Part shown: positions 14,801 to 60,577 of the stretch, piece by piece | Position numbering within the stretch: the first letter of the stretch is position 1 | Layout: each line of letters starts with the position of its first letter | From: Nymphaea colorata | Taxonomy: Eukaryota; Streptophyta; Magnoliopsida; Nymphaeales; Nymphaeaceae | NCBI RefSeq assembly: GCF_008831285.2 | Contig: NC_045143.1 | Coordinates: forward strand, 2,303,503-2,367,502 | Length of the DNA stretch: 64,000 bases | Reading direction: 5' to 3' | Notes under the pieces: model-generated | Seen by the model: the letters and a program-made list of their open reading frames with translations, nothing else | Databases searched by the model: none | Told to the model about the DNA's origin: nothing | Made by a program: the position numbers and the translations under genes

Positions 14801-16138
14801 TCAACATGCACAGCCTCCACTTTGCGGCTCTGCTTCAGAAACTGCCCTTGGCACACTCTGAAAGTAACTGCAGAAAAAAATAACCAAGGATCAGAACCAC
14901 AGCGACCGATATATAACATATAAAAAAAAATGATAAAAAACGGGAAGCTAATGCAGCAATGGAACAACAAAAGGCAGCAAGTTAGTACGAGCATTTCTTT
15001 ACCCAGCTCCATCAAAATGAAAATCTTCAATTAGGTCATGCCAGTCAGCCCAAAACAAGTTCTTGGTTAAATCATCCAAACATGAAAAGAAAAGAAAATT
15101 CACATACTTGTAATTTTATGATGATATATGACTCATAAAACAGAGTTTGAGGCAGCTCTTTAAGCCTCACAGATTATGAGATAGGAGACGAGTGTTTCCA
15201 TGTAGTATGTGACGTGAATTTTAATTTTTATGTCATATGATTAGATCTCAGCTATGCAAAATGATGTACAATATAGACAGAATTAGGAAGAGGCTTGTTT
15301 CAGTCATTCCGACAGAAACCAACAAGAGCTACCTGTAGGTTACACTAAACCAGTGATAATTCTCAGATTGCTATACAAAAATATTATAAAGCCGCACATA
15401 AGCAAACCTTCAAGATCAAGTAACAAAGTTTTACAATTCACAACGAAGTTGCAAACTTGACACATGAAAATATAAGCGTTACACATCATAAATGTGACAC
15501 ACCTCTTCATGCAGGGATGGATAAAGTTCAACTCATTTACAAACAGAAAAGCAAAAGTGTCCTGAATGAAGCTACAATTATAAAAGTACACTACTCTATA
15601 TTGAAAGGAGAGCAGTGAACACGAATTCAATACTGCATGACCTTACTGATGCTAAATGGGCTCAAAAAACCATAATAGTTTGTGATCATCCATGTTTGCA
15701 TTTAATTGTCAAAAACAAGACCTGGTAATTGAGTCGTAATTGCACAATGAAGCTTGAAACATAGTTCAAAATCTTCCAAGATAATGAATCTATCATTTTT
15801 AATGTTATTCTGAAAACAAAATTCCGAAGAAAACAAGGACATAAAATTGATTATACGCATTTGTAAGCTGACCAAAGAAAATGATAGGTTACATTTGAAA
15901 ATCACCCTATCAATATTTCAAATATCATTATTGCAGGTTGACCATGCTTCATTTGTTAACTAAAGTTAATTTTAGCATAAAAGGGCAAAGCCAAGTGAAA
16001 ATTTACCAAGTCCAAAATGGGGTCCAGAAAAAGAGGGATGTGCTTTACAGGGAACAGGATGGCACAGGGAGGAAAAGAAAAAGCAAACAAACTGCCAGAA
16101 CCAACGAAAAGGAAAAGCCATAGGTGCAAAACCAACAC

Positions 16139-16183
<45 letters not shown>

Positions 16184-18800
16184 GTTTGTGCCAAGAAACC
16201 GCATTTACCACCTCGTTTGTTTGACCTGCAGCAATTATCAAATTCAAAAACTTGAGCAAACAAAGGCTGCAGAGGAACATTAATCTCCACCTGAGAACAC
16301 CTAACCTAAGAAAGAAACAGAGATTTCAGGATTTCACTAGAAAAAGGATCACAAACAGTTCTATGTCATGCTCCAGTGCCATGATATTTCTTCAGATTTT
16401 GAAGAAAGATGAAAATCTGTGTGCCTTCTAATTGACAAGAAAAATGCATGGTCCAAGAAAGCTCCAACATGAAAATGAAAAAGCACGTGCAACGCCACAA
16501 TCAGAATCCATTAGTGTGGAAACAATCACTAACATGTCTTGCGCACGATCACTGGCAAGTGCATTTTTCGCTATGCAGAAGAATGCATCATCAATATTGA
16601 TGTCCTCTTTTGCAGATGTTTCAAAATAGGGTATATTCCCCTTTGCGGCACACCAGTCCTTGGCTTTTCTTTCAGATACCTAAAGATTTTCACATTTGAA
16701 TTAGACAAGTATATCAAATAGAAGGGCAATAAAGAATAATGTCCAAGTACTCACCACTCTGCTGTTCCCCCCATCTATGTCAACTTTATTCCCAAGTAGT
16801 ATAAATGGGAATGTCTGGGGATCCGTGGGGCTTGCCTGCAACATATTCAAATTCATCAACAACACAATCACCTGCCACTGCCAGGTCCAAACCTAATCCC
16901 ATGGAGATGATAAATCCTTCTAAGGGAACAAAACTGTTCTGCTAGGCATTAAAAAATCAGACAATTTCACCAATGAAGTACCCCAAGTTCTGCCGCTAAC
17001 GCACAAAGAAGCATTTTAGCTACTACATCAAAGGTCTATTGCTTGTTAAACAAAAAGATTATTCCCGTTTCATGTCCTCTTCTCTCTTGTCACTTCAAAC
17101 AAATAAGCTTAAATCTATTTTGATCATTCACCCAGTAATAAGATGAACTTCTCCTTTTTTAGCAGAAAATGAAATAAAAGCTACCTGATTAAGAAATTCT
17201 GTGTGCCAATTGTCAAGATTGTCAAATGACTTCAACACATTCACATCATAAACAAGAACGCAGCAATCTGCCCCTCTATAAAATGCAACTCCAAGACTTT
17301 GAAATCGCTCCTGCCCAGCTGTATCCCATATCTGCCACAAATGTAGAATATTTCAAGTCAAGAATCAAGAATAAAGGTTTTATAAGACTAGTTTTTGAAG
17401 TTCAAGCGAATCCAGATAAGTGGGACAACTTTGTACTTTAGAGTATACTGCCCCGACAGAGGAATATAATATGCCAGCTTACCTACTTTCTGGAAGAAAA
17501 AAAACCAATCACCTATTAATAAGCACCCGAGAAAGATACAAAATTCACTCACTTGAAGGGTTACAAGCCTATCCTCAACCTGAAGTTCCTTTGTGACAAA
17601 ATCTGCTCCGATGGTTGCTTTGTATTGGTTGCTGAATTTCTTGTGCACATATATGTTGATCAGTTAAGGAGTTACTACCATCTACCGTTCAGATAAATAA
17701 GACAATAGGCAGCTCAAGATGTGCATTGAGATTCAATGAGTAATAAATGAACAAGACAAAGCTGGATATCTAATCCCGTTAAAATAATAACCAATTTTGA
17801 GATCATAGAACCATTTGAACGTGATCAGTTACTTGTGTGCGCGACAGATCACAAGTTTGTCGACACAAAGAATTAGCATAGACAGTGGCCTAAAAGCGGT
17901 TCAAATCGAGCTCATGAAAGCAGTAGCCGACATAAATAAGTGAAGATGCAAATAAAAAATATAATCTCAAATCATATAATAACGATTAGTTGCGCAAACT
18001 TTTCAAACGCTTCAAGAAGGAGCTCCATTCACTAAGCTCGCTAATTATCTGAGACCAGAGAAATTAAATCTGAAACCAGCTTCGAATTATGCCACGACTA
18101 GTATGAGTACACCAAACTGAATATCTCGAGTGAACCAAAAATAAATTCGACTCAAGTTGGTCTAGTCGCTCTTTTATGCCGATCTACTCTGTAAATCACC
18201 ATTTCACTCACTACATATCGACACTAACAACCCATTTGTCTCACTAAAAGTTTGAACCTACAGTTTCCTTCATATTTTGACCGGGAGCACCAAAACTAAA
18301 CATAATATCGGGAAGAATGTTGATGTCAATCTGTATTTGGTTGTTTACTTCAATATTTCAATTAGAAAAACATGTAATAGCAACATCAAGAACCGAGTAG
18401 AGAAACATCGTCAGAGCAATCAAAACTCGCACTTGAGATCCCAACCGTCAAACAACGAAACAACAATTCACAAAAATAAGACGGAAGACCAATTCACTAT
18501 TGAATCTTCGACGAAAATAAAAGGCGACCCAGAAATTCATCTGTTCCCAAACCAGAGAACGAACAACAAGGGAGATCCAGAAGAACCAGCCACCAAAAGG
18601 ATACTGATTCATCAACGAAGTCTTTCCCACCCTGAAAACCAAAAACACAACGGAGGTCCATGAGTTGTATAGCCCGACATCAACAACCCCATAAAATAAC
18701 CAACACACACACACAGAGGGGGGGGAGAGAGAGAGAAAAAGATTTACCCGCTATCACCGAGGACGATGACCTTGAGGAGAGTTCTTCTGCGCATTGACAT
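14801..18800 (-). CDS. RABG3: RAB7-like small GTPase (RABG3 clade)
   Basis: Seven exons on the minus strand: 18800-18748, 18631-18605, 17652-17553, 17331-17185, 16835-16755, 16679-16534 and 14867-14801. They join in phase to 206 aa, the usual RABG3 length. Visible motifs: P-loop GDSGVGKT (15-22), switch I with T40, WDTAGQE (62-68), GNKVD (124-128), ETSAK (156-160) and a C-terminal Cys-Ala-Cys for double geranylgeranylation (204-206). The start [18 protein letters not shown] is typical of the family. RAB7 cycles between GDP and GTP on late endosomes and the tonoplast and drives vacuolar fusion through HOPS. Exon 2 is only 27 nt. The intron after it looks U12-type, and the other junctions are GT-AG. 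The last intron (14868-16533) holds a (CT)20 tract. The specific paralogue cannot be fixed. Confidence 0.96.
16142..16181. repeat. (CT)n microsatellite
   Basis: Twenty uninterrupted CT units inside the last intron of the RAB7 gene. Confidence 0.97.
17653..18604 (-). other. Probable U12-type intron in the RAB7 gene with apparent GT-AT ends
   Basis: The donor reads GTATCCTTTT, a perfect U12 5' splice site. TCCTTAAC, the U12 branch consensus, occurs 11 nt before the intron end (branch A at 17664), and there is no pyrimidine tract and no AG near the 3' end. Keeping the conserved MNQYVHKKFS reading puts the junction after ...ATCAACAT, giving GT-AT termini. Shifting the boundary by one to four bases gives the same protein but loses the donor consensus. 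Length 952 bp, phase 2. Confidence 0.75.
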
Positions 18801-48305: not shown

Positions 48306-50629
48306 GATTGAGCAACCTCAGCACTGATTGGCTTTCCTTTCCTGATCGCAGTGCAAGAAGCAGCAGCGTTTCTACCAGTGATGGTCTCTGCGTCCTTCAG
48401 TCGATAACGTTTTGAAGTGCCAGTGCGGCCTCTTTGTATTCCTCAGGATTTCGTTTCATTTTTCTTGATCAAATGGGTTCTATGAGATGGCGCCGTTACT
48501 GCTTAGCTGGTGGCCGTGCAAGCTGGGGCTTGGTTTGTTAGTTTTTATACAAACGATTGTCTCATAAATTTTAGTCCTTTGTCTCTTTGCTAATTCAATT
48601 ATTCTACCAATTATTTTTCCATATCAAGATGTAAATTGCTGAACATCATGTCACAATTCTCAATGGTGGATCCTGGCAAACCGTCTTCTGAGTCGCCGTC
48701 TTGGAAAGTCGACACTCTCGGTGAATGATTTTGCAAACAGTTATTCACGGCATATCTGTTTAGGTACCAAGTTGAGATTAATCTCCGTTGGAATTTCTTT
48801 TGATGAAAAATTGAAATGAAAATCAGATCAAATAGAAAAAGATCAAGCAAAAATAAGTTCTTCATTTTTATGTGCATTTTTATAAGCCAATGCAGGTGAT
48901 ATCGATGAGACAGCATAAGATCCCCCAGCATTCCTTTCTCTTGAAAACCTTTGTACGGACAATATGGACGAGCTCATTGGGGTTTGATGTCTACAATGCA
49001 CCTAAGTGTCCTCGTAAGCAACTTGATTCAGATGAGCCAAGGCTGTCAATAGGCTAAGGCGGGACCAAGTCACATGCCTAATGAAAGATAATGTGAGATG
49101 TAAACAGATGTAGAAGGTGGTACTGGAGGTTTCTAATGAGTCATCAAACTTGTTCGGCAAGAAAATTCAGATCCACTTGTATGTTCCAAAAACTAGACAT
49201 AGGGAATGAACACCATTTATAAATGACTGAAAAAAAACGGGTTTGCCCTAAAATCCTACTATTTGGAGTTAGTTCATGTGAGACTGTATGACATATTTAG
49301 GAGTGACAATCACACACTTGGCAATGTTTACTTGTGGCAATTTTAAAAAAAATAAAAAGGCTCATGCCTACCAAGAAAGAAGGCATGTTTTTATCAGACA
49401 GCCATTTGAACCCCCTTTTTTGTTTCTTTGAATAGTTCCCAAATAAATTAATCACCTGTAAGCATCACCACTGAACACAGTGCTCCTTGAAACACAGTAT
49501 TCCGTGAATGTGTTTCAAAAAATGGACAAGTTCATGGACTCTGTGTGTCCCAGGGAACACAGCATTCCCGTTACCAAATGCCCTCTAATGTGTACGGGTT
49601 TTCCTTTCTACCAGAACATAAATCACTTCCATCAATTTACCATAGTGACCACTAATTCCAAATCACGAGTCAGAATGCCCAAAATTTCCTCAAAACAATT
49701 TTTCCTCCTAATATCTACGCCCATATTCCCCCTTAGCTTATGCTAATACTGTTAATGCATATTTAAAGCTTTTTCATTATCCTTTCATAAATTTATGTTG
49801 AAATTAGGTTCATCCTCAACAAAGCTAATTGCTAAACATTAGGCATTGTTTTCAGCTGTTCCTATTGTTAATGGAGACATTCGCCTTCCCTTGAGGGAAG
49901 TTCCAGAATGTCTGAATTATTTTCAGACATGGACTAAAATCAGACGAAAATTCAATTGCAGCGTCTCAATTAGTTACTTACTCAAAGTAGCTTGCAATTT
50001 CTACTAGCAGCAGGGGATCTCGAGTTTAATGTGATAGGAAGCCTCGTGAATCAAACCAGTTAAATGACCGACGACCTCCACCATGGACAGCACCATGAGA
50101 AAGCTTAATAGTTGCGAGAACAGAAGTATGATTTAGATTCAAGGTCTTCACCTTATGAGAATCTGCACTGGTAGTAGAAGTTAATGAGCTGAACACAAGT
50201 TGACTTGATAAGATTACAGCGACGAACCCAAACTGGTGATGATTCTAGCTGGGCTCCTATAAGCTTATTAACCAAGTGAGCTATTAACCAGCTGCCCGTC
50301 GAATGCATGCCTTTTCCAGACATTTTTTAATCTACTCTCTTTTAAATGTTATAGGGCTAATTGACCCTTGTAAAATCAACCATATAAATCATACTTTTAC
50401 AGTTAAAATTTGGTCCGTGTTGCCACTGCGTCATTTTGAGGAGCTTCGGCTTAGAAAAACATTTGGATATAGCGTGAACTGGGTCCGTGGTGAACCCGTT
50501 ACACGCTCTCCTTTGGAGCTCGCGAATTCCAGAATTGATTTTCTGTCCTCCGTCGCGCCATGAGTTTCTGCTGGTTAAACCCTTCTGCTACAATTGTCTC
50601 TTGGGTTTAAGAGCCTGGAAGTTCATGGT
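48306..50629. other. Intergenic between SEC31 and the TPR gene
   Basis: The first few hundred bases are the probable SEC31 3' UTR. Around 49450-49600 there are imperfect repeats of AACACAG/TGTGTTTC type on both strands, possibly MITE debris. No gene seen. Confidence 0.45.
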
Positions 50630-53600
50630 ATGGCAGCCCACTCTCTCTGTGCAACTCAAATCCCTTCTTCCCAGCTGCTTTCTCCCCACAGAGTCTCTCT
50701 CCTTTCCCAAATCAGAATTTCCAAACCGAACTCCCTCAATATCCCTATTTTCATCTCCCGCTTTCCTCCTTGTCTTCTTCTCCGTAAGCCCATTTCCACC
50801 AATGTCAAAGCCTTCGCGTCAAATCCCAGAAACCCAAGTGGATCTTCCTTTCTGAAGGAATGTACGAGAAGTATTGGATTTTTTGCAGTGGGGTTGCTTA
50901 TTTCTATGGGCAGTTTCAATAATCCTGCACTGGCTGATGTGAAGGGCAGTGGTACTCCTCCATCGCTGGAGGAAAAGTTGGGTGCCCAAGGTGAAAAGGC
51001 TGTTGACGCTGATGCTTCTCCATCTTTGGAGGGAAAAGTGGAAACACAAGATGAAAAAGTTGATGAAGACTTGTATATGAGGTTGTTGGAGAGGAACCCA
51101 AGAGACGTGGAGGCACTTAAGGTGGTTTTGTATGGAAGGATGAGAGCTGGGAAGACGAAGGAGGCAATCAAGTATGTGGAGAGGCTGATAGAGGTCCAGC
51201 CCGATGAAGTCGAGTGGAAGCTGATACAGGCGCTATCTTACGAGTTGTTAGGTCAGCTGAGCAAGGCGAAGAGGTTATTTAAGAAGATATTGGAGGAAAG
51301 GCCTCTTAATCTCAGAGCATTACATGTATGACATCTCTCATCCCTCTTTTATTATTATAATTTCTTTTTTCCATACGTGAAGGCTGAAGCGCTTCATGGA
51401 TTGTTTAAGTATAGCAGTATTGGTTTATAGTTAAACACTTAAAAGTTATTCGTGAATCGCCCGAGGTTTCTTTGTTACATTTGGTATTTTTGTGTTTGAG
51501 TTATTGTGGTGATTGTTATCTTTATAGGGTGTTATGTTGATATTGTTGTTATGGCTGCTTTATTATTGTTCTTGCCTGATTTTTTGCTACTTCTTTGATT
51601 GGCAATCTGGGCTTCTTGTTTGTCGTTATTACTTTTGATATTTCATTGTTGTATTTTAGGACACGGCATTTATTCAATTAATTCGATCTGTTGGTAGAAA
51701 TGTTCCTTGAAGGCTTGGGAAATTACCAACTTTCAGAACATCGAGTTTTCATGTCCTTTGGTTCTTGTAAGCGAGAGCATTTTACTTAGCCCTGTCACTG
51801 TGACGGCAAACTCCTAAAGAATTCTAATGCGCAGGGACCAAAACTCTGACCGGTGAAAGAGTGCGTGTATACGCTAGAATTGGGTTGTTATTACCTCTGG
51901 CTGGCATATCTAGCGTGCTGCATGTTGGCTCAAGATTGACAGTTTGATGTTCGGCAAATACTGCTTTAATGTTTATCGGTATCTAAGGATTCCTATACAA
52001 TACCACGTGGAGCACTTGAGGTTAATTTGTAGGGTACAGTCAGCTACTCTAGGTGAAGTGGTCAAAATGCTCATTTGTCCAGCCAGAGAGACTTCCGTAT
52101 GCCGTTGTGGCCTGTTCTTTGTCTTTTCATGGTCAAAGCGGGTAATTTGAACCAGATTTTTCATGGTCAAGCTAGTACTTTAAATTTTTAACCAGGAAAG
52201 AACATTTGAGACTCTTTTGGAAGCATATTAACAAATCTTGTGCATCTAACAAGAGATGAGAAGGTGCACAAGTTCTTTACTGGTACTCAGTTCCTTCAGG
52301 TGGAGTAGTGAAAACATGGATATGTTAAAAAGAAATTCTGAGAGAAATGCCATTGGCAATTTATGTTGTGTTCCACAAGCCAATTTCCTGTTTGCATGTT
52401 ATCATTGCAGTTCTGACAGTAGTGCCAATTGAAGGAGAAGGACATGGTTCTAAGCTATTGATACCGATCCTTCTAGAGTTGGTACAGCAAGCAAGGAATC
52501 AATGGCCTCTACTAGTGAGATCAAGTAGTATCTTTTCCTATGAAACAGGTCTGGGATTATTCTGCTTTTGCCCACAACAATCAGCTGTCAATGGAGGCGT
52601 TTATGGCTGCAACATTCTGGTATTAGAGTTGAACAAGGAATTTTTAGAGTTGATGTGCTGATATTACCCCCTTATGCTATCTTTGGAATCCAGAGGTTAC
52701 GGATCTTTTACCCTTAAGATCAAGCATAATGTCTGTGATGCTACACAAAAAAAAAAAAAAAAATTGATTACTCTATAAGCATGCATGTTAGAAGTTCCTT
52801 TTGCTGGGATAGATAACCCAGACATGCAGATTGCAGGAAAATTGCAAATTTTTTGGATAAATATTCATCTATTATGGGGAAAAATAAATTCATTTGCATC
52901 ATTAACTAGAGAGTGGCCTATAAACAAACGGTGTCAAGTGTGGGTAGATAATTTGAGTCCTGCTCAGAGATCTTCTGACTTTGGAGATGATTTTCCTTTC
53001 ATCAGTATTTCATAAACTTAAGGTTGTTTTGACCTTCATCGACACAATATTTACAGAATTTAACATTATTGTTAGTGTGTTTGCCTCCATCTTAAATTCT
53101 GAAAAAGAGTTAACTTTATCCTTTTTAGGGGCTTGCACTGGTGATGCACAAGCGCAATGAAGGTCCAGCTGCTTTTGAAATGCTTAATGATGCCCTGGAT
53201 CTTGCTCAGCAAGAAGCCAGGGTAACTGAGGAGCGCAACATTAAAATATTGATTGCACAAATGCATGTGGTAAAGGTAATGTATCTAGCCTACCACGATG
53301 TAACTGATTTGGTTGAGTTAGCTTGGTTGTTGAACCTTGGCCGAGAGGGCCATAATCATTGTCTTGTTGCTGCATCATGTTTGTAGGGTGAACTTGAAGA
53401 AGGACTAAGAGAATTTGAAGATTTGGTTAAAGAGGATCCTCGAGATTTCCGGCCATATCTATGTCAGGTGCTCTTCACTTCAACTATTTCATAATTGCTG
53501 TGTAGGATTGTGGGTTTACTAAGCCACATTTTTTGCATGCTGGCTTGTATCTTGAGCTATTTGTTTCTTCTATTCTGTACAAATGGTGGTGAAGCAAACA

Positions 53601-56358: not shown

Positions 56359-57661
56359 TTTTGACAATGTTGTCAATCTATAACAAGCACTTCAAGAAAG
56401 CAAAATTGTATCTGAAAATTAATATTCTTCTATTATTTGGCTAATATGGGTTTTCTATGATTGGTTGGACATTGTTCATTCACCGCTAGAGATGGCTTAG
56501 AACTAGTACTAATGGTTCGCTATCCAATGGATCTTTTTGTTGCAAGACTCTGTTCGAGAGTTATGATCATTTACCAAATCTGTTCCCATCTGATAAAGAA
56601 ATGATATTAAATGAAATGAGAAAGAGTTTGGCGCAGCTGGCCCATTCATCATATCTTGTCAACACGTTTTCATGAAAGTAGATTCAACAGAGTCAGCTTG
56701 AATTGTTTTCTATCGTTTGCCACCATGCTATTACAATCTCATATTCTACTTTTTCTTGTTTATGAGATGAAGGGAGAACAATGTCAAAATCGAGAACTGA
56801 ATTGAATTTGAACTGATGATGTATGAGCAAAAATGTTATTGCTTAAAACAAATTAAAAAATTAATATAAAAATAAAAATAAGAAACCTGTAAGCAGATTT
56901 AATTCGATTGAGATCGGTTGATTCAAACATATCTTTTCAACATTGTCATACGAAGCCTGTTCTAAGCAGACGTGCAGTCATGCCATGCACAATATTAGAC
57001 GTCACATGCATCTTCTTCTACCGCTGAGTTAGGTTGTCAAAGGGTTGAGTTTCAGTTGGAAAGGTGGCCCTGCCTGCGACCACTCACGTATAAATATAGA
57101 AAATTTCACCCAAAACCCTTTTCGGGTCCATCTGAATTCAACCTGTGATTTCAGATTTTTAGCGTAAATTTCTCTCGAAGTTATTATTATGAGTTTTTTA
57201 ATATGGTGTTAGGCAAATCTCTCTATCAGTTGATGCATAGAGATGCCCTAGGTATTGAACTAGAAACTTCTTCAATTTGAAAGTCTTAACCAAAATCCAA
57301 ATTGCATGAAAACCAGCTGGTTTTTTTTACTGAACTGAGAACCTCTTCGTCCTCAATTTTAAAAATATGTTCTCAAATCACCCACTCAAGTTATACTTAG
57401 AATGGTGATGGATGTAATGATGGATCTGCTAGATATAAAAAATTTAAATATTTGTTTCTAGGGAATTGGCGATATTGTGAAAGAAGATCGTCATGGACAA
57501 AGCGCATTTTATTTTCTTTGTTGAATTGACCAAAACCATATATTCCTTGGCCCGTCTGTGGTAGATCTGTGTTGGCATGAACATGCCCACTTGTCAGCCT
57601 TCTCATATCAATCAACGATGGGTGGAAGAATGTGAGAAGATCAGAGAAGCCCTTCTTCACC

Positions 57662-60577
57662 ATGATCACTAACGAGCAGTTTGAAGGGTTCCTGGAGGCC
57701 CTCCTCATGGCTAAGTGGGAGCTATTCAACTGGCTATTGGCGGCCTTCTTTCTGTTTTTCATGATCAGTTGGGAACAATTCAAAGGGCTTCTACTCTGCT
57801 TCTTTTTCATGCTAAACTGGGAGAAGATGAAGGGTTTCATGGAGGCTTCTGTCAGGTGGCATGGCCTTGTCGTACTCCATTTCTATTATCTCAAAGAGCA
57901 CAAGAAGATCTATGGAGCTCTCGTGGAGGAAATGAAGAGATTGAAGAACAACCAACACATCATTCACAGGCATGCAGATGATAGAAGCAGGGGAGAAGAG
58001 AAATGCCACATACAGGACTGGCTAGACAAGGCAGAGGGCATTGAGAGAGATATCGTTTCTATTAAGAAGGAAATTGAACAAAGGAAGATGAACATGAATC
58101 CGTGGCTTGCTAAGCACTACCTGAGCTACAAGCTTGGGAAGATGGCCCAAGATAAGCTCAATGAGATGATTGAGCACAATGCTAAAATCCCACTTGACCA
58201 AGAAGAGTTAAGCTCCTCTTGTAATGGCAATTTATTAATGGAGTTTCCTATCACAGCCTCGGAGAATGAAGTGTGTTCCCATGAGAGAATGCAAACAATT
58301 CTCAATTATGTAGAAGATGATCAGAATCCAAAAATTGGCATCTATGGTATGGGAGGAATCGGGAAGACGACGCTTGTGCGTCATGTTCACGAAAGAGTCC
58401 AGGGATTTGATCCCATCATCTTTGCTACGGTCTCCAAAGAACCCAATCTCCAAGTTCTCCAAAGGAACATTGCAACAGCGCTGGATATATCACTGCCTGC
58501 AGAATCAACATCTGAAGATATTGCACTGAGAATTTACATTCAGCTTAAGCACAGAAAGTACTTGCTGATCTTAGATGATGTGTGGGGAGAATTGGACCTT
58601 ACACAACTGGGAATTCCTGATCCAACGAACGGTAATGGCTGCAAGATCATCTTGACAACCCGATCTTTGCATGTCTGCAACTCGATGCAGACAGGTGTGC
58701 AGATCAAAATAGAGCCGATGACCAAATCTGAGGCATGGGATCTACTCCGGAAAAAGGCGGGAGATGTCATACTTAAGGACAGCATACAACCAATTGCTGA
58801 AGAAACCATGGAAGAGTGTGGTGGACTGCCTCTTGCCATCGTCACCCTTGGTGGAGCACTGAGAAACAAGAGCACTACAGGCCCTTGGAATGAAGCCTTA
58901 AGGGAGCTGAGACTGTCATCAGGAGAGACTGTAGGTATGGAGCTTGCTGTCTTTCAAAGTTTAAAATTTAGTTACGATTACTTGAAAGGCGTTGATCTGA
59001 AAAAGCTCTTCTTGTACTGTTGTTTGTTCCCCGAGGACTGCGACATAGATATAAGATCTCTTAAGGACATCTGCTACTTCGATAGAGTCCTCAATTATGT
59101 AAGCAGCCATTTCCAATCACACTCAAGGATCGATAAAATCATTGAGAAACTCAAAGAGTTAAGTTTGTTAGAGAGTGGATTTGTAGATAACTACTATGTT
59201 AAAATGCACGATTTGGTGCGCGACATGGCCTTATGGATCACATCTGAAGGAGAAGGGCCCAGGTTTTATGTGAAAGCAGGTGTTGGACTAACAGAGGTTC
59301 CAGAGGACGAAGTGGATTGGGAGGAAGTTGAGATCATATCACTGATGATGAATGATTTACAAACACTTCCAGACGAGCCAAAAGGCACAAAGGTTAGAAT
59401 GCTGTTGCTTGGCCAAAACAGTGGTTTAAGAAGCATCCCATTCAGCTTCTTTGTTCACATGGATGGAATGCAGGTCCTTGATCTTAGTGACACAGCAATT
59501 TCATCACTTCCTCCATCAATTTCCTTGCTGAAGAAACTGAAAGTCCTTCTGTTAACAAATTGTGAACATTTGGAGGATGTGCAACCCTTGGCAGCCCTCA
59601 CACAGCTTTTACATCTAAAGCTTGATGGAACAGCAATAAAGGAGTTACCAGCAGCAATGAAGGGGATGAGAAGCTTGAGGCTTCTGTCGCTGCATGGTAC
59701 ACGCCATCTTAGTAAAATTGCACATAATTTGTTGAGTGGAATGAACAATCTGCAGAAACTCGACATGGGGATGAGCTACAGGAGATGGGTAGCAGTAGGA
59801 AGATATGCAGTTAGTTCAGGCGTTCATTTGAGTGAGTTGCTATGCATGAAACATTTGAGATATCTGGAGATCACAATAGAAAGCAACATTGAGACTCTGG
59901 AATGGATGCTGAGAAGCAGATTAACAAGAGTATTAAAAGGACTGCACATCATCAGCTGTGAAGGCTTAGTTGAAATACAGTCATGCCACTTGAGCAGTTT
60001 GGCTTCCTTGAGCATTCTTGGCATTTCTTGTTGCTCCGATTTGGAAAGGATTGGAACAATAGGTGACAATGAGGAGCTACCATTCACCGATTTGGTGCAC
60101 TTGGGATTGATTGAACTGCCAAAGTTGGAAAGCATATGGGAAGGTTTAGAGTCACCCAGGAGCTTCCAAAACTTAGAGGTTGTTGTAATCGATCGCTGTC
60201 ATTCATTGAAGAGCTTCATTTCACTTAACAGCGTGCTGCAACTAAAAAAACTCTGCTTTCTTACAATCTCAAATTGCACAGAGATGGAGGAGATAATTGA
60301 TGCGGAAGTTGGTGAAGAGAACCCATTGCCGAACCTGAATGCATTGCGGATTCTGAAGCTTCCAAAGCTTACAAGAATTTGCACAGCTTTTCTGACATGG
60401 ACTTCATTGAAGCATGTAGACGTGGAAGAGTGCCCACAGTTGAAGGCAGTTCCATTTAACTCCCACAATGCAAGGAGTCTGAAGATTGCAGGAGAAAGAG
60501 GGTGGTGGGAAACGTTGCAATGGGAAGATGAGGAGACCAAGACCTCTGTGCAGAAGAATTTCATCCCCTCCGATTGA
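57662..60577 (+). CDS. CC-NB-LRR immune receptor (CNL, RPS2/RPS5-like), single exon
   Basis: One uninterrupted frame. The first ATG in frame (MITNEQFEGF) gives 971 aa; the frame extends 28 codons further upstream without an ATG. NB-ARC motifs in order: P-loop GMGGIGKTTL (229-238), kinase-2 LLILDDVW (301-308), RNBS-B GCKIILTTRS (326-335), GLPL in CGGLPLAI (386-393), RNBS-D FLYCCLFPED (450-459) and MHD in VKMHDLVRDMALW (513-525). LRRs run from about 570 to 945 and end WWETLQWEDEETKT, typical of this clade. The protein should sense pathogen effectors and trigger cell-death signalling. Oddities: residues 8-62 hold three imperfect repeats with two strongly hydrophobic stretches instead of a usual amphipathic helix, and the WIAEG-type motif after RNBS-D is absent although the spacing to MHD is normal. 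All nucleotide-binding motifs are intact, so it is not an obvious pseudogene. Confidence 0.95.
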   Translation: MITNEQFEGFLEALLMAKWELFNWLLAAFFLFFMISWEQFKGLLLCFFFMLNWEKMKGFMEASVRWHGLVVLHFYYLKEHKKIYGALVEEMKRLKNNQHIIHRHADDRSRGEEKCHIQDWLDKAEGIERDIVSIKKEIEQRKMNMNPWLAKHYLSYKLGKMAQDKLNEMIEHNAKIPLDQEELSSSCNGNLLMEFPITASENEVCSHERMQTILNYVEDDQNPKIGIYGMGGIGKTTLVRHVHERVQGFDPIIFATVSKEPNLQVLQRNIATALDISLPAESTSEDIALRIYIQLKHRKYLLILDDVWGELDLTQLGIPDPTNGNGCKIILTTRSLHVCNSMQTGVQIKIEPMTKSEAWDLLRKKAGDVILKDSIQPIAEETMEECGGLPLAIVTLGGALRNKSTTGPWNEALRELRLSSGETVGMELAVFQSLKFSYDYLKGVDLKKLFLYCCLFPEDCDIDIRSLKDICYFDRVLNYVSSHFQSHSRIDKIIEKLKELSLLESGFVDNYYVKMHDLVRDMALWITSEGEGPRFYVKAGVGLTEVPEDEVDWEEVEIISLMMNDLQTLPDEPKGTKVRMLLLGQNSGLRSIPFSFFVHMDGMQVLDLSDTAISSLPPSISLLKKLKVLLLTNCEHLEDVQPLAALTQLLHLKLDGTAIKELPAAMKGMRSLRLLSLHGTRHLSKIAHNLLSGMNNLQKLDMGMSYRRWVAVGRYAVSSGVHLSELLCMKHLRYLEITIESNIETLEWMLRSRLTRVLKGLHIISCEGLVEIQSCHLSSLASLSILGISCCSDLERIGTIGDNEELPFTDLVHLGLIELPKLESIWEGLESPRSFQNLEVVVIDRCHSLKSFISLNSVLQLKKLCFLTISNCTEMEEIIDAEVGEENPLPNLNALRILKLPKLTRICTAFLTWTSLKHVDVEECPQLKAVPFNSHNARSLKIAGERGWWETLQWEDEETKTSVQKNFIPSD

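What the first reader, a model, noticed from the sequence alone, without database searches (positions are those of the whole stretch)
17640..18610. U12-type intron in a RAB7 gene with apparent GT-AT termini
Seen: donor GTATCCTTTT and branch site TCCTTAAC 11 nt from the 3' end, both textbook minor-spliceosome signals, with no AG anywhere near the acceptor. Known: U12 introns are usually GT-AG or AT-AC; GT-AT is a rare class. Inferred: the conserved Rab7 reading MNQYVHKKFS forces the 3' end to ...CAACAT. If right, an essential trafficking gene depends on a very rare splice class.
Basis: partly seen in the sequence, partly recalled or inferred. Interest (0 to 1): 0.7.

Follow-up and report, generated by a model that had tools for sequence, protein, structure and literature searches.

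The report
Rare-ended minor intron in plant RAB7
One of three full RAB7 trafficking genes found in a plant genome has a minor-spliceosome intron that appears to end in AT where its two sister genes end in AG, a rare but already recognised variant that still needs an RNA test.

Summary
On the minus strand lies an intact 7-exon, 206-aa RAB7/RABG3 gene. Its second intron, 18604-17653 (952 nt), starts GTATCCTTTT and has TCCTTAAC with the branch A 11 nt before ...GATCAACAT|ATATGTGCAC. With that donor fixed, 49 AG and 44 AC acceptors were tested (from 30 nt inside the intron to 30 nt before the end of exon 3). One keeps the [11 protein letters not shown] reading, an AG 21 nt inside exon 3 that removes seven conserved residues.

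Two paralogues in the same genome give independent support. They have the same phase-2 intron, with GTATCCTT kept 8 of 8 although synonymous sites are saturated against the window gene. Both start exon 3 at the homologous base but end the intron in TAG or CAG. So this is a U12-type intron whose AG has most likely become AT.

GT-AT minor introns are rare but known (passages of PMC8280824, PMC4176328): a new member of a known kind. The 'essential gene' claim is weakened by the two paralogues with GT-AG ends. No transcript could be examined, so a splice-site lesion, an allele or a base-call error is not excluded. Modest interest.

The parts
18748..18800 (-). RAB7/RABG3 coding exon 1 ([18 protein letters not shown]...)
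18632..18747 (-). intron 1, 116 nt, GT-AG
18605..18631 (-). coding exon 2, 27 nt, ends AATCA (phase 2)
   Evidence: also 27 nt in both paralogues, counted on the sequences
17653..18604 (-). intron 2, 952 nt, U12-type, apparent GT-AT termini
   Evidence: homologous introns in L021 and L022
18595..18604 (-). U12-type 5' splice site GTATCCTTTT
   Evidence: GTATCCTT conserved in both paralogues
17663..17670 (-). U12-type branch site TCCTTAAC, branch A 11 nt from the 3' end
17653..17658 (-). 3' end CAACAT; the paralogues have TAG and CAG as the last three bases
17553..17652 (-). coding exon 3, begins A TAT GTG CAC (completes CAA Gln, then YVHKKFS)
17185..17331 (-). coding exon 4
16755..16835 (-). 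coding exon 5
16534..16679 (-). coding exon 6
14801..14867 (-). coding exon 7, ends ...SGGCAC stop (Cys-x-Cys tail)

Best explanation
Intron 2 of this RAB7 gene is an old U12-type intron shared by the three complete RAB7 genes that I found in this plant. In this copy the last intron base has changed, so that the intron ends in AT instead of AG. The minor spliceosome recognises it through the perfect 5' site and strong branch site and cuts after CAACAT, at the optimal 11-nt distance. The exons are joined as AATCA|ATATGTG (Asn-Gln-Tyr-Val). Shown: the motifs, their spacing, the frame constraint, the homologous boundary in the paralogues. Inferred: that the minor spliceosome uses this site in vivo, and that AG was the ancestral state.
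For: Intact gene, 7 exons, 206 aa, ungapped to Rab7 chains through MNQYV-KKFS. GTATCCTTT donor and TCCTTAAC with branch A 11 nt from the end; optimum 11-13 nt in a review (PMC3584512 passages). Of 49 AG and 44 AC acceptors tested, 1 keeps [11 protein letters not shown] in an open frame, and it deletes YVHKKFS and changes Gln to His. Both paralogues have the U12-type donor at the same phase and exon 3 starting at the homologous A, with AG before it. dN 0.18-0.19 with dS saturated against the paralogues. A 5' G is said to pair with a 3' G or T in U12 introns (PMC4176328 passage); GT-AC is disfavoured; GT-AT is listed among human G-type minor introns (PMC8280824 passage). The DNA search found no second copy of the junction.
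Against: No transcript evidence. The AT is a single-base difference from CAG, so one base-call error or one heterozygous site would explain it. The paralogues' branch sites are weaker (by my reading GCCTTGAG and CGCTTAAG; best scores 7 and 6 of 9, no better than the 6-7 of 9 of the window gene's five GT-AG introns), so their U12 type rests on the donor. A GT-AC site 2 nt upstream competes and would shift the frame. Boundaries shifted by 1-2 nt (TA-TA, AT-AT) give the same protein, and other in-frame non-canonical cuts exist that add or remove residues (GT-AT 6 nt upstream, GT-AA 3 nt upstream and 12 or 15 nt downstream). In plants almost 75% of non-canonical minor introns are AT-AA, so GT-AT is at most a part of the remaining quarter.
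Confidence: 0.8

Rival explanations
1. The AT is a recent lesion: the 3' splice site has been lost in a redundant RAB7 copy, the intron is mostly retained or mis-spliced, and the gene is on its way to a pseudogene.
For: Two complete paralogues with GT-AG ends exist. Retention would give a stop after 78 aa, and use of the AC 2 nt upstream would shift the frame into a stop.
Against: The rest of the gene is intact: five other introns GT-AG, no frameshift or stop, full Cys-x-Cys tail. Its branch site is the best U12 match of the three paralogous introns (8 of 9 against 7 and 6) and at optimal distance. GT-AT is a workable U12 pair in the literature. A very recent lesion would leave the rest intact too, so this does not exclude it.
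Confidence: 0.1
2. Base-call error or heterozygous site: the true or common sequence is CAG and the intron is an ordinary U12 GT-AG.
For: One substitution separates CAT from the CAG of paralogue L022. Only one assembly was available.
Against: The DNA search found no conflicting copy in the assembly. If this is the Nymphaea colorata assembly, it was PacBio-based and polished with Arrow and with Pilon (PMC7015852 passages), which makes a lone substitution error unlikely.
Confidence: 0.08
3. An AG 21 nt inside exon 3 (ending at 17632) is used, giving a protein that lacks seven residues and reads [11 protein letters not shown].
For: The only one of 93 tested AG/AC acceptors that keeps [11 protein letters not shown] in an open frame.
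Against: It lies 32 nt from the branch A, far outside the 11-13 nt optimum. It removes YVHKKFS, which aligns without gaps to the four Rab7 alignments shown and to both paralogues.
Confidence: 0.02
4. Boundary shifted by 1 or 2 nt (TA-TA or AT-AT) with the same protein but codon CAG.
For: GTAT at the donor and ATAT at the acceptor make the join ambiguous at protein level.
Against: It puts the donor out of register with the U12 consensus. Both paralogues fit a cut before the G of GTATCC with exon 3 starting A TAY. AT-AT is almost absent among conserved non-canonical minor introns of plants.
Confidence: 0.02

Closest known systems
U12-type (minor spliceosome) introns, GT-AG subtype
   Same: 5' site GTATCCTTT, branch site TCCTTAAC, branch-to-end distance 11 nt; homologous introns in two paralogues end in AG
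   Different: last base T instead of G
GT-AT (G-type, GT-AN) U12 introns
   Same: same terminal dinucleotides: listed for human (PMC8280824 passage), stated as possible (PMC4176328 passage), and in a list of accepted non-canonical ends in grass EST work (PMC4323234 passage, which cites Lewandowska 2004, not held here)
   Different: here in a RAB7 gene, without transcript proof; I saw no earlier report for this gene in the listings
RAB7 / plant RABG3 small GTPases
   Same: 206 aa, best solved matches are Rab7 chains, Cys-x-Cys end; the RABG3 name is recalled
   Different: nothing notable in the protein

Membership tests
U12-type intron | 5' splice site [A/G]TATCCTT | tested here: met
   GTATCCTTTT at 18604; GTATCCTT at the same place in L021 and L022
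U12-type intron | branch site close to TTCCTTRAY near the 3' end | tested here: met
   CTCCTTAAC, 8 of 9; the consensus used in the script is recalled, TCCTTAAC is given in PMC2831892 (passage)
U12-type intron | branch A to 3' splice site about 11-13 nt | tested here: met
   11 nt; optimum as in PMC3584512
U12-type intron | no distinct polypyrimidine tract | tested here: inconclusive
   0.60 pyrimidine in the last 20 nt against 0.45-0.70 in the gene's five other introns
U12-type intron | removed by the minor spliceosome | not testable with these tools
   no RNA data; a search for U12 snRNA (RF00007) in the own genome did not complete
GT-AG or AT-AC U12 subtype | canonical terminal dinucleotides | tested here: not met
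   of 93 AG/AC acceptors tested one keeps the reading, and it deletes seven conserved residues
GT-AT U12 subtype | GT start and AT end at the true exon boundary | tested here: met
   frame and homologous boundary in two of two paralogues; sequence level only, no transcript
RAB7/RABG3 | Rab7-type GTPase with Cys-x-Cys tail | tested here: met

The most novel reading that the evidence does not exclude
The CAAC|AT|ATATG end is a tandem acceptor in which the minor spliceosome chooses between a frame-breaking GT-AC cut at 9 nt and a productive but weak GT-AT cut at 11 nt. If so, the output of this RAB7 copy would be set by minor-spliceosome activity, while its two GT-AG paralogues stay constitutive.
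Probability: 0.08. Interest if true: 0.55.

Novelty: new member of a known kind. Interest (0 to 1): 0.33.

Why it matters
It would give a clean natural test of how freely the minor spliceosome treats the last intron base. Three paralogous genes in one plant share the same intron with a U12-type donor, two ending in AG and one in AT, the AT copy having the strongest branch site. It is also a concrete case in which gene prediction that assumes GT-AG would be expected to mis-annotate an intact gene.

Tried and rejected
A second copy or haplotig carrying the same junction: the DNA search of the own genome with 18800-17553 gave 3 matches, namely the locus itself, a C9 fragment and a short exon 1 match on C1 in the paralogue L022 (that tool scores only its best candidates). 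The C9 fragment lacks the junction.

Relatives outside the plant: the genome-contig scan returned 26 loci, by their titles archaeal and bacterial, no plant, so no other species' intron could be compared.

Prior reports tying RAB7 or RABG3 to U12 introns: 318 papers, 20 listed; 1; 73, 20 listed; 5; 2. By these listings none looked relevant; I opened none of the hits. Dietrich 2005, Lewandowska 2004 and a third paper (PubMed id 16914448) are not held.

Minor-spliceosome snRNAs in the own genome: not completed (calls in the membership test). Rfam on the window: 0 matches at gathering score.

AT-AC readings of the intron in the range scanned need the donor out of register and change or add residues; rejected. 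An earlier count said four other GT-AG introns; one search shows five.

Full report
WHAT IS THERE. The window is part of an unnamed 408-Mb, 783-contig genome. It is plausibly the water lily Nymphaea colorata (409 Mb in 804 scaffolds; PMC7015852 passages), but the contig count differs and I did not test the species. On the minus strand 18800-14801 lies an intact 7-exon gene coding 206 aa. Its best solved relatives are Rab7 chains, and the four alignments shown are ungapped through the region in question. Five of its six introns are GT-AG; intron 2 is not.

INTRON 2. It runs 18604-17653 (952 nt): AATCA|GTATCCTTTT ... CTCCTTAACTGATCAACAT|ATATGTGCACAAG. The donor fits the U12 consensus, the branch site matches 8 of 9 positions, and the branch A lies 11 nt before the end. 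The best U12 branch-site scores of the five other introns are 6-7 of 9, with the branch A 16 to 26 nt from the end. The motifs alone are not rare in 64 kb (TCCTTAAC six times, 2.0 expected). Their places are what is unlikely: about 3e-4 for the donor at a given GT, about 2e-4 for the branch site in 13 placements.

FRAME. With the donor fixed, I tested 49 AG and 44 AC acceptors, from 30 nt inside the intron to 30 nt before the end of exon 3. The criterion was an open frame that keeps [11 protein letters not shown]. One passes, and it would delete seven residues and turn Gln into His. The GT-AT cut gives exactly MNQYVHKKFS. Shifts by 1 or 2 nt (TA-TA, AT-AT) would give the same protein from codon CAG. 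Other in-frame non-canonical cuts within the scanned range (GT-AT 6 nt upstream, GT-AA 3 nt upstream and 12 or 15 nt downstream, and some with shifted donors) add, change or remove residues. Full retention gives a stop after 78 aa, and the GT-AC cut 2 nt upstream runs into an early stop.

PARALOGUES. The protein search of the own genome gave 87 matches. Those nearest in sequence pointed to two further RAB7 genes and a fragment, which I fetched: L021 (C6:5403500-5413000), L022 (C1:30128500-30138400) and L023 (C9). L021 and L022 read as intact 206-aa proteins with seven exons, 74-75% identical to the window protein. Synonymous distance to the window gene is saturated (NG86 dS 3.3 and infinite) and dN is 0.18-0.19. 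Both keep GTATCCTT 8 of 8 at the same place and phase, while blastn of the window's intron against theirs gave only matches of 15-18 nt. Both start exon 3 with A TAY GT, and both end the intron in AG...TTATTAG and ...TTCTTCAG. So the exon boundary in the window gene is fixed by homology as well as by frame, and the base before it differs: T for G. Against this, their branch sites are weaker (best scores 7 and 6 of 9), so calling them U12 rests on the donor.

OTHER COPIES. A DNA search with 18800-17553 found the locus, an 84% fragment of intron 2 on C9 and a short exon 1 match on C1, which lies in L022. The C9 piece (L023) also holds an 86% copy of the exon 4 tail and start of intron 4, but not the junction. 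No haplotig with CAG was found.

HOW IT MOST LIKELY WORKS. Minor introns are recognised by donor and branch site; the optimum branch-to-end distance is 11-13 nt, and GT-AC is disfavoured (PMC3584512 passages). A 5' G can pair with a 3' G or T (PMC4176328 passage). AT at 11 nt is then the expected cut; the AC at 9 nt is both short and disfavoured. This step is inferred.

WHAT IS KNOWN. GT-AT appears among human G-type minor introns (PMC8280824 passage) and in a list of accepted non-canonical ends in grass EST work (PMC4323234 passage). Non-canonical ends are about 4% of conserved plant minor introns, almost 75% of them AT-AA (PMC10639083 section 30). So this is a new member of a known rare class. 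I found no paper on RAB7 or RABG3 and U12 introns in the held library by the listings, two of which showed only the first 20 papers; most subscription journals are not held.

VERDICT. Observation confirmed; interpretation right in its core. The claim of dependence of an essential gene is weakened by two paralogues with GT-AG ends. Confidence in functional GT-AT splicing is about 0.8; the rest is mainly a recent lesion or a base-call or allele issue, and RNA reads would settle it.

Noticed in passing
own genome G000, loci L009 (C339), L011 (C419), L013 and L014 (C735), L015 (C81), L016 (C333), L017 (C117): Small unplaced contigs carry Rab-like genes, uninterrupted in the matched stretch, with in-frame TAA/TAG. 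In L009, L015 and L016 the stop sits where the query has the Glu of WDTAGQE. This suggests contamination by a ciliate with reassigned stops, perhaps a peritrich with UAA/UAG = Glu (code recalled, not tested). Of the eight loci looked at, L019 shows no stop in the matched part.
   Followed up: partly
L023 3813-3938 and 4656-4869 (C9:10270312-10271368): Decayed, mosaic fragments of this RAB7 gene: an intron 2 piece (84%) and the exon 4 tail plus start of intron 4 (86%), with sequence between them that does not align.
   Followed up: partly
window 57632-60577, +: 981-aa open frame with NB-ARC and LRR domains, a plant NLR-type disease-resistance gene.
   Followed up: no
window 50594-51331, +: Open frame with TPR-type repeats towards its C-terminal end.
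   Followed up: no
window 16142-16181: TC/GA dinucleotide microsatellite inside intron 6 of the RAB7 gene.
   Followed up: no
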